From Sinomicrobium sp. (GTDB taxonomy: Bacteria; Bacteroidota; Bacteroidia; Flavobacteriales; Flavobacteriaceae): a DNA stretch of 64,000 nt. A program made the translations under genes and the position numbers. Shown here in pieces: positions 2,740 to 9,732 of the stretch. The stretch is from positions 1 through 64,000 of the forward strand of contig JAJUFH010000006.1 of the NCBI GenBank assembly GCA_029266035.1. Reading direction: 5' to 3'. The notes under the pieces were generated by a model that was not told where the DNA came from, ran no database searches, and worked only from the letters and a program-made list of their open reading frames with translations. Position 1 is the stretch's first letter. Every line of letters starts with the position of its first letter.

Positions 2740-3561
2740 ATGACAGTATATTATAAACAAGCAATCGAAAATTTAGAAGAAGAAATAAATAAATTGCACT
2801 TTGAACAGAGCGACTTATTGGTTTCTTATGAGAAAGCTATTAAACTCATTTTAGCAAAAATTTCTGAATTGAAGCAATACGTGCTGGATGTAGGGTTTAA
2901 AAACCAACAGGAAGAAATTTATTTTTTCAAACACCAGAAACCTGCCCTTGTTTCCAAATTGATTTACTATAACGCTGTTTATAAAATCGAAACCAAAAAG
3001 CCTTACGGAGAGAAACAAATAAAAAGATTTCTTAACAAAGAATTGAGTAAGCTCAAAAAATTCTTTGATAACAACATTGATTTTTATAAGTATTACCGTA
3101 GCAACAATTCCTTTCTCGACGTGAATTTCTTTATGAGAGGAAAACACGATATAAGGTTATGGTTAGATACATATTATTTTGAAGCAGACCATCGTTTTTG
3201 CACCTCCCACGATTATAAGGTTGCCAAAATATTAGCCAATGATTTGATACAAGCATATCTTGAAGACCAGCTAAACAATAATCATAAAAAGACGTTTAAT
3301 AATTCTTCACTCAATTGGACGGGAAGCAAAACGGCATTAACCGAGTTAATATACGCACTTTATGAACAAGGTGTGTTCAACAACGGAAATGCCGATATAA
3401 AACTAATTGCCAAAACATTTGAAAGCACCTTTAATATTGATTTGGGCGATTTCTATCATACGTTTATGGAATTGAAAGCCCGTAAAATTAACCGAACGAA
3501 ATTCCTTGACAGCCTGTGCGAAGCCCTGATAAAGAAAATGGACGAGCAGGACGGTAAGTAG
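2740..3561 (+). CDS. rteC: RteC-family protein (conjugative transposon regulator family)
   Basis: 273 aa; overall architecture and C-terminal FYHTFMELKARKINRTKFLDSLCEALIKKMDE characteristic of RteC proteins. Confidence 0.8.
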   Translation: MTVYYKQAIENLEEEINKLHFEQSDLLVSYEKAIKLILAKISELKQYVLDVGFKNQQEEIYFFKHQKPALVSKLIYYNAVYKIETKKPYGEKQIKRFLNKELSKLKKFFDNNIDFYKYYRSNNSFLDVNFFMRGKHDIRLWLDTYYFEADHRFCTSHDYKVAKILANDLIQAYLEDQLNNNHKKTFNNSSLNWTGSKTALTELIYALYEQGVFNNGNADIKLIAKTFESTFNIDLGDFYHTFMELKARKINRTKFLDSLCEALIKKMDEQDGK

Positions 3562-3568
3562 AAGTTAT

Positions 3569-4630
3569 TTAAGTATTTACTTGGGTGTATTCAAGATTTA
3601 TATTTTCAATGTCATAGACATTAGTTTCAATACACTTGAATTTTTCAGGATAAAATATTGCAACATTATAACCCTGCGAATATAATGAACTTCTAAATTC
3701 TATACCGTCAAATCCCATTGATTTTATCAGTTCTGAAAGATACTGCGTTGGCAGATAATCCAATTCGCTGTCATTCTTTCTTCTTGGCTTTGAAAGTTCT
3801 TCTTCCAATTTATCAATGAAAGAACCGTGTAACATAACTTCCTCTAAAGATTCTAATTCTGCAAGCCTGAATACATCGTATGTGGAGCGACTTAAATTAA
3901 CTACTCTTATGTCTTCTTCGAGTTTAAATGTACCGACAGAAACATAATCAAATAAACTTGCTCTTGCTTCATACAAAGTTGTTGTTATGTCATTGGCAAT
4001 ATAGAGATAAGAAATACCATTCGGATTGGCTCTTCCGCTTTTGGCTAATGCATTAGGGGGATTACCCATTTGTTCGAGAGGATACCCTTGTGGGTTATTA
4101 CTAATTCTTGCTCGGTAAAATTTCTTTCCCTTTTTGTAATCTTTCTGAAAATGTTTGAATAAGGATTTTAATTTTTCCAAATCCAAAGCATTTACAAAAT
4201 GAAACCTATTTACAGTTTTTATTTCTTCGGAAAACTTATCCCAAGAAAGGAAAAGAGGTTGAGTAACGTCTTCCTCTGCTCCTGTATTATGAAACCTTAA
4301 TCGTACAGGATTATCTAAAACATTTTGATAATTGGCAATGTCATCTTTAATAATTTCAGCGATGAGCTGTTTTATATTATTTGTATCAATTAGTTTTTGC
4401 GTAAATACTTTTTTATGAAAATCCGTAATAATTTGAATTTCCAATGGTTTTCCATTGGCAGTATCAACTTCATACAAGTCAATAATCCCAAGAAAGAAAG
4501 GGTTTAATTCGGAAGCCTCATAGATACTCACATTTTCGGACAGACAATAATCACAATTACCTGTTGTCTTGTTACCCAAAATGATAGCATTTATATAACT
4601 GCTCTCAAAACAATTTGTGCAACAATTCAT
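3569..4630 (-). CDS. RES-domain protein with N-terminal zinc-ribbon-like segment
   Basis: 353 aa; CCTNC...CDYC at N-terminus; FYRARI...GRANPNGISYLYIANDITTTLYEARAS RES signature. Confidence 0.8.
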   Translation of the reverse strand: MNCCTNCFESSYINAIILGNKTTGNCDYCLSENVSIYEASELNPFFLGIIDLYEVDTANGKPLEIQIITDFHKKVFTQKLIDTNNIKQLIAEIIKDDIANYQNVLDNPVRLRFHNTGAEEDVTQPLFLSWDKFSEEIKTVNRFHFVNALDLEKLKSLFKHFQKDYKKGKKFYRARISNNPQGYPLEQMGNPPNALAKSGRANPNGISYLYIANDITTTLYEARASLFDYVSVGTFKLEEDIRVVNLSRSTYDVFRLAELESLEEVMLHGSFIDKLEEELSKPRRKNDSELDYLPTQYLSELIKSMGFDGIEFRSSLYSQGYNVAIFYPEKFKCIETNVYDIENINLEYTQVNT

Positions 4631-4631
4631 A

Positions 4632-5573
4632 CTAAATCAATTTCAATACTAAATCTATATGGTTCATTAAGGAAAGTTTCTTTAATGTCCCTAATCCCGG
4701 AAAGTGTCCGTTCTCGTGAAAACGTCTAAATTCAGGTATAGCAATAGAGTTATAGCCTGTTTGGTCACACCAAGCAATGAGTTTATCTAAAGCCTCAGCA
4801 AACTTTCCTGCAATATCCGATGTGTCATCGTTTGAGTCAGAAACAAAATGCTTCACTTTTATTCTATTTGTTTGTGCTTCCGCATAAGATAAATGTATCG
4901 CAACAGCGTAGGGCAAAAACCCTGTTTCCGAATATTCCTCTCCAATAGAAAGATAGTCTGAAAAACCTTCAAATCCTTCGTCTTTGTAATAGATATGTTC
5001 TTCTGAAAAATTGCTTTCATCTACTTGCAAATAATCAGCATTCTTTGTTTGAGCATTGAAATAATCGTCAAGTTCAATCAGGGTATTTCTTTCAAAATTT
5101 CTAAAATATCTTCTACTTGTTGATGATAGATTGATTACATTATACCTAATAGCAAAATGTTCTTGATATGATTTAAGAATATCCGAAATGTTATCAAACA
5201 CGGCATTATGAATAATACTTAGAGCAGGAATAGCTTTTGTATATTGTTGTAAAATGCCAATAGCTTTTGAATGGTCTATCCTATTATGGAAAATAACACC
5301 TATCTGATAATTTGTATAATCTCCAACTGAACTACTAATAGTATTAAAGATTGCATTGGTATCTTTGAATGTTCCTACTTGTGGATTAACAACAACTGTA
5401 AAATTGATATCATGACTTGCTAATTCTTTTATTGTAGTCTTTAAAGTAGAAGAATCCTTGACAGGTTCAATAATAGGAGATACCTTGGCTTTATTTGGAA
5501 AAAGAACAGGTTTAGTTAATTCTCTTATTCCTATCAACTCAAACTGTTTTCCTCTTATATACGGTTGATACAT
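4632..5573 (-). CDS. sce7725-family protein (phage beta-protein-like)
   Basis: 313 aa; N-terminus YQPYIRGKQFELIGIRELTKPVLFPNKAKVSPIIEPVK matches the sce7725/beta-family start; overlaps the sce7726 gene. Confidence 0.75.
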   Translation of the reverse strand: MYQPYIRGKQFELIGIRELTKPVLFPNKAKVSPIIEPVKDSSTLKTTIKELASHDINFTVVVNPQVGTFKDTNAIFNTISSSVGDYTNYQIGVIFHNRIDHSKAIGILQQYTKAIPALSIIHNAVFDNISDILKSYQEHFAIRYNVINLSSTSRRYFRNFERNTLIELDDYFNAQTKNADYLQVDESNFSEEHIYYKDEGFEGFSDYLSIGEEYSETGFLPYAVAIHLSYAEAQTNRIKVKHFVSDSNDDTSDIAGKFAEALDKLIAWCDQTGYNSIAIPEFRRFHENGHFPGLGTLKKLSLMNHIDLVLKLI

Positions 5574-6424
5574 ACGCTTTTAGTTGCTAAAAAATTATAC
5601 AATCTTTGATATTCCTGCTCATTAAAATCCAAAGAATTACAAATGTGCTTTAGTTCTCTTGGGGTTTTAGATGATTTCAGCAAGTCGGGGTTCAATAACT
5701 TTCTTTCTTTTAATTTATTCAAAACCTGCTTTTGAAAATCAACTATATCAATTGTGGCAAGTAGTTCGTAACAAGCTCTAAAAATTTTTGTATTAGGAAC
5801 ATCAGGAACAGAACCAAAATTAACAGCAACTAAATCAAGATACTCTTGCTTTCTCAATATTTTAAAAATAGTTTCAAAGTCGAAGAAAGATTTATTTGCA
5901 TCTGCCTCTTTCATCGTTTCCAATTTATTTTTGGTATTTAATGCAATAATACCAATGCTTGTGTTTTGGTATTCAACTTGGAGCTTTTTGGCGTACTTTT
6001 CATCTGTAACAATATGTACCTCGTTGGCAAATTTTCGGTAGTCATTTATTTGTTTTGCCAACTTTTCTAATCCGTCAAGTTCCGTTTTAATCTCATAGAC
6101 TCTTACAGCACCGTTCAACATAACCAAGTCGGCTTTTGAAGCACCAATTTTTAGTTCATTAAGCGTTAATGTTGATTTTAAGCTATGAGTTTTTATAATA
6201 TCAATAATCAAATTATTTTTATAAATGTATTCACATCTATATTGCTTTTGTAACGACTTATATAACGACTTAATTATATCTAAGTTGGTTTCGTATGAGG
6301 TAGTGTTGAAGTATTTATCTATTTGTTTTTGAAATAGCACATAATCGTCTTCCCGTACTATCTTTTGGAACATAGGCGGGGAGAAAATTTGTGATAATAC
6401 TCTCAACTTTTGTATAGTTTTCAT
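5555..6424 (-). CDS. sce7726-family protein, possible PD-(D/E)xK nuclease-like fold
   Basis: 289 aa; KADLVMLNGAVRVYEIKTELDGLEKL (D...ExK); adjacent to and overlapping sce7725. Confidence 0.75.
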   Translation of the reverse strand: MKTIQKLRVLSQIFSPPMFQKIVREDDYVLFQKQIDKYFNTTSYETNLDIIKSLYKSLQKQYRCEYIYKNNLIIDIIKTHSLKSTLTLNELKIGASKADLVMLNGAVRVYEIKTELDGLEKLAKQINDYRKFANEVHIVTDEKYAKKLQVEYQNTSIGIIALNTKNKLETMKEADANKSFFDFETIFKILRKQEYLDLVAVNFGSVPDVPNTKIFRACYELLATIDIVDFQKQVLNKLKERKLLNPDLLKSSKTPRELKHICNSLDFNEQEYQRLYNFLATKSVCINRI

Positions 6425-6638
6425 ACTACTTCTTTACACTACAAAGGTAACAAATTACAAAAAGATAACTATTATAATGCTTGATAATTCGGTTTCGTGG
6501 CTTAAATAGGTTATAAATTTAGTCAAAAAAATGTACCAACATATACTTTAACATTATAAAACAGTATCAACAAATATATTTTTTCATTAGGGTTCTACTT
6601 AATGCTTTTAGGTAGTAGCTTCGTGACTTAACGAGTTT

Positions 6639-6693
6639 AACCGCTCCAAATCTTCCAAAAAATGTTTCGAGATTTGTTCGGTTTCGGCTACTA
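6639..6693. repeat. Direct repeat copy 1 flanking AbiE module
   Basis: aaccgctccaaatcttccaaaaaatgtttcgagatttgttcggtttcggctacta; about 51/55 identical to 8786-8840. Confidence 0.9.
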
Positions 6694-6696
6694 ACT

Positions 6697-6721
6697 AGGA
6701 CGGCTAAAAAGTCGTCCTTTT
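6697..6721. terminator. Intrinsic terminator-like hairpin next to repeat copy 1
   Basis: aggacg-gctaaaaag-(t)cgtcct followed by a T-run. Confidence 0.65.
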
Positions 6722-6968: not shown

Positions 6969-7694
6969 TTGGCAGAAACATTGGAAAAACATATTGGTCA
7001 TTATTTCAAAGGACATGAAAGGCTTTCCAAGCAGAAACTTGTTGGCTCCATCAAAAAGGATTTCCCGGATTGGTCCGACAATACGATTAATATGTATTTG
7101 TCCAAATTGAAAAAAGAAGGAATTATAAATACGCCTTCAAGGGGAATTTATGAGATAGATAGCCACACGCTTTTTCAGCCAAATATTTCAATCAAACTAA
7201 AAAGAATATTTAATAAAGTAAAAAGAGAGTTTCCTTATATATCTTTCTGTATTTGGGATAGTGTTTGGTTAAATGATTTTATGCTTCATCAACCGTTCAA
7301 GCATTATATCGTTGTGGAAGTAGAAAAAGACGCCTGCGAATCAGTGTTTAGCTTTCTTAGTGAAACGATGAAAAATGTTTTTCTAAATCCTGATGAGGAT
7401 ATTTTTAACCATTATATCCGCAATCTTGATGAGGCAGTAATTATAAAAAACATGGTTTCTGAATCACCTTTGACAGAAGTACAAAAGGTTATGGTTCCAA
7501 GATTAGAAAAATTTTTGGTGGATATGCTGATTGATACAGCTCTTTTTTCTGCACAGCAAAATGAAAAAGAATTTATTATGCGAAGTGCAATGGAGAAATA
7601 CACATTGAACGAATTAAAAATGCGCAGGTATGCTATCCGAAGAAACAGAGAGAAGGAAATTGAAAATATGATTAATATAATTTCGGCAAAATAA
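6969..7694 (+). CDS. AbiEi-type antitoxin (winged-helix, DUF6577-like)
   Basis: 241 aa; N-terminal wHTH (LSKQKLVGSIKKDFPDWSDNTINMYLSKLKKEGIINTPSRGIYEI); immediately upstream of AbiEii toxin; TTG start in ORF track. Confidence 0.75.
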   Translation: MAETLEKHIGHYFKGHERLSKQKLVGSIKKDFPDWSDNTINMYLSKLKKEGIINTPSRGIYEIDSHTLFQPNISIKLKRIFNKVKREFPYISFCIWDSVWLNDFMLHQPFKHYIVVEVEKDACESVFSFLSETMKNVFLNPDEDIFNHYIRNLDEAVIIKNMVSESPLTEVQKVMVPRLEKFLVDMLIDTALFSAQQNEKEFIMRSAMEKYTLNELKMRRYAIRRNREKEIENMINIISAK

Positions 7695-7718: not shown

Positions 7719-8759
7719 GTGATAAACTCAACATCATATACAATTGAGTGGATTATCAATTTGAGAAACAAATTGGGAAAACGTATTGACCCGAAATTGA
7801 TTGAAAAGGTAATATACGCTTTGACACTTTTGGAACAACTTCGCTTGAACAATTTGAATTTCGTTTTTAAAGGAGGAACAGCCCTGCTTTTAGCCACTGA
7901 AAACCCTAAGCGATTTTCGATAGATATTGACATCATTACAGAAGAAGCTGAGAATAAAATCAAGGAAATTTTAGAGAAGATTAGCCAATTAGAAATGTTT
8001 ATCCGTTGGGAAGATGACAATGATAGAAAACACACACCTGATGCACCAATCGGACATTTTAAAATATTTTACAAAAGTGTGATAGATGGTCACGAAGAGC
8101 CAATATTGCTGGACTTGCTCTATAGTCCAAATCCTTATCCTGAAACAAGAGAATATCCGATAAACCATAACTGGTTAGCCATATCAGGCGAAGATACTAC
8201 GGTGGTGCTGCCGACATTTGAGGCTATTTTAGGAGATAAACTAACAGCTTTCGCTCCGAAAACCACAGGTATTCTATATTCAAAAAACCGTCCTGTGGAA
8301 ATTATCAAGCAATTGTATGATATTAGTTTCTTATTTGACCGAACAACAAATCTCCGTGTTGTGAAAGAGAGTTACACAAGAGTCGTTACGGAAGAAATAG
8401 GTTACCGAAAATTAAACATAAATGCTACCGAAGTTTTGAAAGACACTTGGCAAGCTTGTTATATCTTGGCAAAAAGAAATATAAAGTCCGATGAATTCAA
8501 ACTTTTGCAATTAGGTATTAAGAACTTTACAAATTTCATTATTGAACGCTTTTCAATAGAGGAAGCGATAACAGCAGCTGCTAAAGTAGCTTATTTAACC
8601 TCATTACTCAATAAAGAAAATCAAGAAATAGAACGGTTTGAAAATCCGTTGGACATCAAAGATTGGCTGATTGAAGACCCAACCTACAATAAATTGAACA
8701 AGTTAAAAAAGACCAATCCGGAAGCATTTTTCTATTGGTATAAGAGTTTCGGGCAGTAA
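7719..8759 (+). CDS. Nucleotidyltransferase AbiEii/AbiGii-family toxin
   Basis: 346 aa; FKGGTALLLATENPKRFSIDIDIIT nucleotidyltransferase motif. Confidence 0.9.
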   Translation: MINSTSYTIEWIINLRNKLGKRIDPKLIEKVIYALTLLEQLRLNNLNFVFKGGTALLLATENPKRFSIDIDIITEEAENKIKEILEKISQLEMFIRWEDDNDRKHTPDAPIGHFKIFYKSVIDGHEEPILLDLLYSPNPYPETREYPINHNWLAISGEDTTVVLPTFEAILGDKLTAFAPKTTGILYSKNRPVEIIKQLYDISFLFDRTTNLRVVKESYTRVVTEEIGYRKLNINATEVLKDTWQACYILAKRNIKSDEFKLLQLGIKNFTNFIIERFSIEEAITAAAKVAYLTSLLNKENQEIERFENPLDIKDWLIEDPTYNKLNKLKKTNPEAFFYWYKSFGQ

Positions 8760-8785: not shown

Positions 8786-8840
8786 AACCGCTCCAAGTCC
8801 TCCAAAAAATGTTTCGAGATTTGTTCGGTTGGGGCTACTA
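8786..8840. repeat. Direct repeat copy 2 flanking AbiE module
   Basis: aaccgctccaagtcctccaaaaaatgtttcgagatttgttcggttggggctacta; about 51/55 identical to 6639-6693. Confidence 0.9.
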
Positions 8841-8845
8841 AACAG

Positions 8846-8877
8846 GAGAAGTGATTAATAGTATCGCTTCTTTTATC
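8846..8877. terminator. Intrinsic terminator-like hairpin next to repeat copy 2
   Basis: agaagtgat-taatagt-atcgcttct followed by T-rich stretch; one G-U pair. Confidence 0.55.
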
Positions 8878-8892
8878 GCTCTTCCCCAAACA

Positions 8893-9732
8893 TCACTCCT
8901 CTACTCTTTGGGCGACAAATACTGATAAGGCATTTGCCCGTTCTGTACCCCTACTTAGATATTGTACCTCTCCATTTTTCCAAAGGGTAGCAATAGCTCT
9001 TGAATGGTTGAATGCATCACCCACCATATATACATCACCATCCGAAACAAATACAGAGTAGCCAAATGTTCCTGGGGCTGTTATTAGATCACCGTCGTTT
9101 AGCTGCTGTGCCACGCCATTTTCCCAAAGGGTATTGACATACGCTGTACCGTTGTGTGAATGGCCTGCCACATATACATCACTTCCCGCCACAAATACCG
9201 AATAGGTCCGGACACTACTCGCACCATCGCTTAGTTCCTGTGCTACGCCATTCTTCCAAATAGTAGCAACGTCTAATCCTTTATTTACAAAACCCGCTAC
9301 ATATACATCGCTACCTGAGACAAATACAGAACTGGCAATGGCCCAATCTGTGCCCTCGCTTAGCTCCTGTGCCTCGCTATTTTCCCAAAGGGTGGCAATT
9401 CTCTTCTCACCCCTGCCTGTATAGCCCGACACATAGACATCACTGCCTGAGACAAATACCGAATTAGCTTCTGTATCATTCACGTCTTCGCTTAACTCCT
9501 GTGCCTCACCGTTCTTCCACAGGGTAGCGACCGCGTTTGTGCCGTTATATACATTCCCCGCCACATACACATCGTAAACCGCCTCGGGTTCAGGATTAGG
9601 ATCGGGATTGTCAGGGCCTCCATCGTCATTAGAGCAACTAAATGCGACAATGGTGAGTATGGCCAACACTAAGACTTTTAAAGTACTTTGCAGGGGGTGG
9701 TTGTTTATACAGTGATTGCTGTTTTTTTTCAT
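8893..9732 (-). CDS. Secreted lipoprotein with five ~44-aa repeats (putative beta-propeller)
   Basis: 279 aa; lipobox-like VAFSCSNDD; five repeats of the type DVYVAG...ATLWKNGxAQxLSDG...SVFVSGS. Confidence 0.8.
   Translation of the reverse strand: MKKNSNHCINNHPLQSTLKVLVLAILTIVAFSCSNDDGGPDNPDPNPEPEAVYDVYVAGNVYNGTNAVATLWKNGEAQELSEDVNDTEANSVFVSGSDVYVSGYTGRGEKRIATLWENSEAQELSEGTDWAIASSVFVSGSDVYVAGFVNKGLDVATIWKNGVAQELSDGASSVRTYSVFVAGSDVYVAGHSHNGTAYVNTLWENGVAQQLNDGDLITAPGTFGYSVFVSDGDVYMVGDAFNHSRAIATLWKNGEVQYLSRGTERANALSVFVAQRVEE

What the first reader, a model, noticed from the sequence alone, without database searches (positions are those of the whole stretch)
3569..6424. sce7726-sce7725-RES three-gene operon, candidate undescribed defence/toxin system
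Seen: three minus-strand genes with a 19-bp overlap and a 1-bp gap, implying co-translation, in a mobile-element context next to an AbiE module. Established: sce7725/sce7726 are named families of unknown function; RES domains occur in toxins acting on NAD+. Inference: nuclease-like + phage beta-protein-like + NAD+-targeting effector would fit a multi-component anti-phage or interference system.
Basis: partly seen in the sequence, partly recalled or inferred. Interest (0 to 1): 0.75.

Follow-up and report, generated by a model that had tools for sequence, protein, structure and literature searches.

The report
NAD-toxin relative of phage-satellite defence operon
Three adjacent genes on a mobile DNA element form a widespread unit that shares two of its parts with a proven anti-phage system of the satellite phage P4 but carries a different toxin, one predicted to destroy the cell's NAD+, so it is probably an unrecognised virus-triggered self-sacrifice system that can be tested directly in E. 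coli.

Summary
The trio is a real unit. All 80 genome loci kept for relatives of this sce7725 have sce7726 just upstream, and 78 of 79 testable ones have RES just downstream, across at least six phyla. The three proteins co-diverge (r 0.94-0.96) under purifying selection. Catalytic residues are invariant: PD-(D/E)xK in sce7726, and the NAD+-phosphorylase residues of RES. The key identification is that sce7726 belongs to the family of phage P4 cII, and sce7725 is a remote homologue of P4 Beta. P4's gop-beta-cII is a proven anti-phage system (PMC9122126) in which Gop is toxic without Beta. Here the Beta-cII core is kept and Gop is replaced by RES. Other Beta-cII loci carry other partners. In four E. 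coli strains inspected the RES trio lies in islands with Kiwa, Pycsar, AbiE or BREX. In flavobacteria it sits at the end of a mobilisable element that carries tet(X) in three genomes. Best reading: abortive anti-phage/anti-element system with a NAD+-destroying effector; new variant of a known kind. Phage protection, toxicity and the roles of sce7725/sce7726 are untested.

The parts
5555..6424 (-). sce7726-family gene (289 aa), homologue of P4 cII; PD-(D/E)xK nuclease-like protein (E90, D99, E111-x-K113, Q125)
   Evidence: NF033832 151 bits; PADLOC 'cll' E 1.5e-13; P4 cII hits the same NCBIfam model at 151 bits; AF2 pLDDT 95.6, best PDB fold matches include 3dnx, SfsA and EndoMS; D99, E111, K113, Q125 in 93/93 homologues, E90 in 92/93
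4632..5573 (-). sce7725-family gene (313 aa), TIM-barrel-like, remote homologue of P4 Beta (PF14350)
   Evidence: NF033831 285 bits; hhalign against 10 Beta proteins: probability 95.4%, pair E 2e-8, 297 columns nearly end to end, unrelated controls at most 1%; AF2 pLDDT 93.3, PDB matches are TIM barrels at TM about 0.4
3569..4630 (-). RES-domain gene (353 aa), predicted NAD+ phosphorylase effector; N-terminal C4xxC7/C26xxC29 zinc-ribbon-like motif and HEPN_RES_NTD1-like region
   Evidence: PF08808 E 2e-13, PF18870 27.3 bits against cut-off 27.4; R173, R175, R200, Y210, E221 in 90/90, S314 and N322 in 88/88 ungapped, C4, C7, C26 in 90/90, C29 in 87/90
3532..6694 (-). 3.16-kb block shared at 96% with Chryseobacterium, Kaistella and Gelidibacter and at 99.5% (as part of a longer match) with Avrilella; upstream edge at 6694 is exact
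   Evidence: blastn of window against fetched loci, edge sequences
6639..6700 (-). 62-bp element-end repeat; copy 1, just upstream of the trio
   Evidence: direct repeat D3; same sequence at the edge in five genomes
8786..8847 (-). 62-bp element-end repeat; copy 2 (90%), downstream of AbiE
2740..3561 (+). RteC-family gene, convergent with RES; carried by the same element
   Evidence: PF09357 E 2.5e-82; RteC homologue at the same place in L026-L028
6969..8759 (+). AbiEi (6969-7694) and AbiEii (7719-8759): neighbouring cassette, not part of the trio
   Evidence: PADLOC AbiEi 2e-91, AbiEii 2e-139; outside the shared block

Best explanation
A mobile three-gene immune module built on the Beta-cII core of the P4 gop-beta-cII anti-phage system, with a RES-domain NAD+ phosphorylase in place of the Gop toxin. 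Proposed working: the RES protein is the effector and, when released, converts NAD+ to ADP-ribose-1''-phosphate plus nicotinamide, so the cell stops growing or dies before phage is made. sce7725 (Beta-like, TIM-barrel-like) holds it silent in uninfected cells, as Beta does for Gop. sce7726 (PD-(D/E)xK, cII-like) engages invading nucleic acid or its processing and sets the switch. Shown here: conservation as a unit, co-divergence, purifying selection, homology of two parts to cII and Beta, intact catalytic residues, and a defence-island setting in E. coli. Inferred: toxicity, silencing by sce7725, sensing by sce7726, phage protection.
For: Trio order in 80/80 (sce7726) and 78/79 (RES) genome loci, plus plasmids and ICE. 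Co-divergence r 0.943-0.955, 0/999 permutations. dN/dS 0.03-0.23. P4 cII is a member of the sce7726 family; sce7725 vs Beta hhalign 95.4%. In 297 Bacteroidota genomes every sce7725 over the cut-off (8/8) and every Beta gene found (4/4) sits beside sce7726. P4 gop-beta-cII blocks lambda and P1, and Gop is toxic without Beta (PMC9122126). RES active-site residues invariant and matching NatT R23, R82, Y93, S184, N193, a proven NAD+/NADP+ phosphorylase (PMC11535050). E. coli: 18/5426 genomes carry the trio, in the four inspected beside Kiwa, Pycsar/TIR/caspase genes, AbiE, BREX or type I restriction. Carried on mobile elements: flavobacterial mobilisable element, P. aeruginosa IME (PMC9394441).
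Against: No functional datum for any member. sce7725 is not recognised by Pfam Beta_protein itself, so its Beta role is by remote homology. Gene order and strand differ from P4, where gop and beta are co-directional and cII convergent. In 13 genome loci the flanking genes were only modestly richer in PADLOC matches than control stretches, and that comparison is blurred by redundant models and housekeeping helicases. One trio-like locus lacks RES (L101) and some sce7725 loci do too (L016, L020), so RES is not indispensable. sce7726 also occurs without either partner.
Confidence: 0.66

Rival explanations
1. A selfish toxin-antitoxin (addiction) module: RES is the toxin, sce7725 (with or without sce7726) the antitoxin, and the function is to stabilise the plasmid, ICE or IME that carries it rather than to stop phage.
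For: Carried on plasmids, an ICE and mobilisable elements (PMC9394441). RES domains are classic TA toxins (PMC9503650). Gop/Beta was first seen as toxin/antitoxin.
Against: Three large conserved proteins with an invariant nuclease-like active site are more than addiction needs. The homologous P4 module does stop phages. In E. coli the trio occupies interchangeable slots among defence systems.
Confidence: 0.18
2. The trio acts mainly against competing mobile elements (plasmid or ICE interference): sce7726 cuts or senses incoming DNA and RES is a back-up killer.
For: Sits at the end of mobilisable elements beside mobilisation genes; PD-(D/E)xK fold with invariant active site.
Against: The only functional datum in the family is phage protection (lambda, P1; PMC9122126). 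No plasmid data.
Confidence: 0.1
3. RES makes a signal (ADP-ribose-1''-phosphate) that the sce7725 barrel binds to license the sce7726 nuclease, so the nuclease is the effector and RES the alarm enzyme.
For: sce7725 is a TIM-barrel-like protein with invariant polar residues (E36, N63, D206, H227, H242, K298, H305), i.e. ligand- or enzyme-like. sce7726 keeps a full catalytic set.
Against: In Beta-cII loci the RES slot is filled by non-enzymes (2-TM Gop) or regulators, which fits an effector/partner slot better than a signal maker.
Confidence: 0.06

Closest known systems
gop-beta-cII of satellite phage P4 (DefenseFinder/PADLOC gop_beta_cll; PMC9122126)
   Same: cII belongs to the same NCBIfam family as sce7726; Beta is a remote homologue of sce7725; three-gene, mobile, toxin plus restraining protein plus PD-(D/E)xK-type protein.
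   Different: Gop (133 aa, membrane protein) is absent and replaced by a soluble 353-aa RES protein; all three genes co-directional in the order sce7726-sce7725-RES; sce7725 falls below Pfam Beta_protein detection.
RES-Xre toxin-antitoxin modules (MbcT, ParT, NatT)
   Same: RES domain with the five residues named for NatT (PMC11535050).
   Different: No Xre antitoxin gene; RES is C-terminal to a conserved about 150-aa N-terminal region with four Cys; obligate sce7726-sce7725 partners. PMC11535050 states that no RES TA system had been implicated in immunity.
NAD+-depleting immune systems with TIR or SIR2 effectors (Thoeris, DSR, SIR2-HerA)
   Same: Same proposed strategy of infection-triggered NAD+ destruction.
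   Different: Different enzyme fold and chemistry (phosphorolysis by a RES ART-fold domain); unrelated sensor genes.
Other Beta-cII loci found here (L106, L107: TM protein plus M78 peptidase; L139, L140: XRE plus M78 peptidase; L141: SocA/Panacea)
   Same: sce7726-family gene next to a PF14350 Beta gene.
   Different: Different third/fourth partner; sce7726 convergent with Beta.

Membership tests
gop-beta-cII defence system | cII component | tested here: met
   sce7726 hits PADLOC cll (E 1.5e-13); P4 cII and sce7726 share NF033832; hhalign 99.7%
gop-beta-cII defence system | Beta component recognised by PF14350 or PADLOC | tested here: not met
   No PF14350 hit, no PADLOC hit
gop-beta-cII defence system | Beta-superfamily homologue at profile level | tested here: met
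   hhalign probability 95.4%, E 2e-8 for the pair, 297 columns; controls at most 1%
gop-beta-cII defence system | Gop toxin | tested here: not met
   No Gop-like membrane protein among the three genes; the third gene is RES
gop-beta-cII defence system | gop-beta co-directional, cII convergent | tested here: not met
   Here all three co-directional; P4 layout
gop-beta-cII defence system | Protection against phage | not testable with these tools
   Needs plating assays
RES NAD+ phosphorylase toxins | RES domain with catalytic R, R, Y, S, N | tested here: met
   PF08808; invariant R173/R175, R200, Y210, S314, N322, placed against NatT residues by spacing (PMC11535050)
RES-Xre toxin-antitoxin module | Adjacent Xre-family antitoxin gene | tested here: not met
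   Neighbours are sce7725 and RteC
RES NAD+ phosphorylase toxins | Depletes NAD+ and is toxic | not testable with these tools
   Needs expression and metabolite assay
PD-(D/E)xK nuclease superfamily | Fold and E...D...ExK...Q motif | tested here: met
   AF2 model pLDDT 95.6 matching PD-(D/E)xK-type folds, best 3dnx E 1.9e-4; invariant residues
PD-(D/E)xK nuclease superfamily | Nuclease activity | not testable with these tools
   Needs purified protein
HEPN_RES_NTD1 (PF18870) | Score above gathering cut-off | tested here: inconclusive
   27.3 bits against 27.4
sce7726 and sce7725 NCBIfam families | Score above curated cut-off | tested here: met
   151/70 and 285/60 bits

The most novel reading that the evidence does not exclude
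A modular immune family exists in which a Beta-like barrel protein and a cII-like PD-(D/E)xK protein form a constant control core and the killing or regulatory part is swapped: membrane Gop in P4, membrane protein plus M78 peptidase, XRE plus M78 peptidase, SocA/Panacea, or a RES NAD+ phosphorylase. The RES branch would be the first immune system using RES-type NAD+ phosphorolysis.
Probability: 0.5. Interest if true: 0.78.

Novelty: new variant of a known kind. Interest (0 to 1): 0.63.

Why it matters
It ties two widespread families of unknown function (sce7725, sce7726) to a validated anti-phage system. It gives the long-puzzling RES toxins a plausible immune role: PMC11535050 notes that immunity systems known to target NAD use TIR or SIR2 only, and that no RES TA system had been implicated. 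It also predicts a general rule, a Beta-cII core with exchangeable effectors. Because 18 of 5426 complete E. coli genomes carry the trio, it can be tested in laboratory E. coli K-12 with standard phages.

Tried and rejected
Scan of viral contigs with the single sce7725 protein found no relatives. Sequence search of solved structures found nothing significant for any of the three. BFVD top match of the sce7725 model (Gordonia phage Powerball A0A5J6TRS2, E 2.9e-7) could not be tied to Beta_protein: Beta searches of the phage set found P4, Pmp11 and Rac-SA53 but not it. A PADLOC census of genes flanking the trio in 13 genomes against stretches elsewhere in the same genomes (147 vs 54 model names) is not usable as an enrichment statistic, because models are redundant and control hits were mostly UvrD-type helicases; I rely on the annotated E. 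coli islands instead. The literature search including 'cll' returned leukaemia papers. hhalign of the trio RES with a single Xre-partnered RES protein was weak, so RES identity rests on Pfam and residue conservation. Considered and rejected: AbiE as a fourth component (outside the element edge, absent in the other genomes); a chance run of ORFs (excluded by recurrence and dN/dS); a housekeeping NAD gene (patchy, 9/297 Bacteroidota genomes with any sce7725 match, one of them weak). A Bacteroidetes -7-like box (TACCTTTG, 6449-6442) precedes sce7726, but I found no -33 partner and do not claim a promoter.

Full report
OBSERVATION. They score as sce7726 (151 bits, cut-off 70), sce7725 (285 bits, cut-off 60) and RES (50.9 bits, cut-off 23.2) with a borderline HEPN_RES_NTD1 region (27.3 against 27.4 bits). 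The window is a flavobacterial chromosome contig (relatives at 97-100% in Flavobacteriales).

IT IS A UNIT. An alignment-based scan of one genome per species (GTDB r220) found 471 stretches encoding sce7725 relatives; the best 80 were kept with up to 10 kb on each side. In all 80, sce7726 lies directly upstream on the same strand. In 78 RES lies directly downstream. One exception ends at a contig edge (L029) and one truly lacks RES (L101, where a Schlafen/AlbA_2 gene follows). Median gaps are 1 and 2 bp. Hosts span Bacteroidota and their relatives (Balneolaceae, Chlorobiaceae, Ignavibacteriales), Bacillota, Pseudomonadota, Gastranaerophilales and Anaerolineae. The 80 are the closest relatives of this sce7725, so the count is biased to this type. 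The unbiased check is the even sample of 297 Bacteroidota genomes: eight sce7725 genes over the cut-off, all beside sce7726, seven of them followed by RES. Annotated plasmids of Pseudorhizobium, Rhizobium, Shinella and Moraxella and an ICE in Salmonella houtenae show the same trio. Pairwise distances of the three proteins over 73 dereplicated loci correlate at 0.943-0.955 (0 of 999 permutations; shared ancestry contributes to this). All three genes are under purifying selection, dN/dS 0.03-0.23.

WHAT THE PARTS ARE. sce7726: AlphaFold2 model at pLDDT 95.6, matching PD-(D/E)xK-type folds in the PDB (3dnx E 1.9e-4; weaker SfsA, EndoMS, XPF, Hjc). D99, E111, K113 and Q125 occur in 93 of 93 homologues and E90 in 92. 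RES: R173, R175, R200, Y210 and E221 in 90 of 90, S314 and N322 in all 88 ungapped. The spacing fits the active-site residues R23, R82, Y93, S184, N193 given for NatT, a proven NAD+/NADP+ phosphorylase (PMC11535050). The N-terminal region carries C4xxC7 and C26xxC29, nearly invariant. sce7725: pLDDT 93.3, TIM-barrel-like by PDB comparison (TM about 0.4).

THE KEY LINK. PADLOC calls the sce7726 protein 'cll', the cII protein of the P4 gop-beta-cII system. I fetched P4: its cII scores 151 bits on the sce7726 model, and RefSeq annotates P4-type loci as gop, beta family protein, sce7726 family protein. sce7725 is not found by Pfam Beta_protein, but a profile of 96 sce7725 proteins against ten Beta proteins aligns 297 columns with probability 95.4% and pair E 2e-8, starting at the shared N-terminal motif Y-x-P-x-(L/F)-R-x-x-x-x-E and reaching the C-terminal segment; four unrelated pairings gave 1% or less. 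With seven Betas it was 89%. gop-beta-cII protects E. coli against lambda and P1, and Gop is toxic without Beta (PMC9122126). So the trio keeps the Beta-cII core and has RES where P4 has Gop.

MODULARITY. In the Bacteroidota sample all four Beta genes found lie beside sce7726. Their partners differ: XRE plus M78 (ImmA/IrrE) peptidase (L139, L140), an M78-peptidase-like ORF read by eye (L138), SocA/Panacea (L141). On plasmids: small membrane protein plus M78 peptidase (L106, L107). In Pasteurella phage Pmp11 a Gop-like small protein precedes Beta (L111). Prophage Rac-SA53 has Beta and cII alone. sce7726 also occurs without either. This suggests a constant core with exchangeable partners; that is inference from a small sample.

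SETTING. 18 of 5426 complete E. coli genomes carry the RES trio at 97-98% to the Salmonella copy; 39 carry gop-beta-cII. In the four E. coli islands opened, the trio sits beside KwaB (Kiwa), a cyclase/Pycsar-effector, TIR and caspase set, type I restriction, AbiE or BREX. One strain has a frameshifted RES. In flavobacteria a block (window 3532-6694) is 96% identical in Chryseobacterium, Kaistella and Gelidibacter and ends at exactly the same base upstream of sce7726, with unrelated DNA beyond. In Gelidibacter the element can be followed over about 12.5 kb: end repeat, trio, RteC, Tet(X) (843 bits, cut-off 750), relaxase, large serine recombinase, then chromosome. A P. aeruginosa IME with integrase, relaxase and this trio is mentioned in PMC9394441. 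In the window the AbiE pair lies outside the element edge, between two copies of the 62-bp end repeat.

MECHANISM. Best-supported proposal: RES is the killing arm (NAD+ phosphorolysis), sce7725 the Beta-like restraint, sce7726 the nuclease-like trigger acting on foreign nucleic acid. Shown: co-conservation, homology, catalytic residues, setting. Inferred: toxicity, restraint, trigger, protection. The main rival is an addiction module for the mobile element; the test that separates them is phage plating against element stability in K-12.

KNOWN OR NEW. The literature held here mentions sce7725/sce7726 only in gene lists and one proteomics table, where sce7725 was detected as a protein in E. coli isolates. 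None of the searches gave a functional account of this trio; preprints and most subscription papers are not in the library, so a description elsewhere cannot be excluded. By the membership test it is not gop-beta-cII (no Gop, Beta below model threshold, different layout), but it probably works like it: a new variant of a known kind.

Noticed in passing
window 6639-6700 and 8786-8847; G000:C31:1211-1265; G000:C29:382230-382285: A 56-62-bp element-end repeat occurs four times in this genome, each next to defence-type genes: the RES trio, AbiE, a HsdR type I restriction plus HerA-type gene group (C31), and another AbiEii-like pair (C29). It may mark a recurring integration site for defence cargo.
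   Followed up: partly
edges at window 6694/6695 and in L025, L027, L028, L170, L171: By eye, the insertion points lie directly after intrinsic-terminator-like hairpins (in L026 after a tRNA-like sequence), as if the element targets the 3' side of terminators.
   Followed up: no
L172:4463-5596 (Gelidibacter); similar genes in L026, L027: A Tet(X) tetracycline-inactivating monooxygenase gene travels on the same small mobilisable element as the trio in Gelidibacter; similar genes, read by eye, stand at the same place in Chryseobacterium and Kaistella.
   Followed up: partly
L025:12643-13947: In Avrilella the RteC gene is interrupted by a 1.3-kb insertion with a transposase-like ORF and a 4-bp overlap of the flanks.
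   Followed up: no
L016:8642-9367: A trio-like locus without RES has, on the opposite strand after sce7725, a 241-aa protein with several hydrophobic stretches, possibly another effector type.
   Followed up: no
L020 and L024: Enterococcus faecium plasmid p114-2 and a contig filed as a Listeria phage carry sce7725 without RES and with a shortened or unrecognised upstream gene.
   Followed up: no
window 9004-9596: Five imperfect tandem units of about 132 bp inside a secreted repeat protein gene (8893-9732), with related genes elsewhere in the genome (C29).
   Followed up: no
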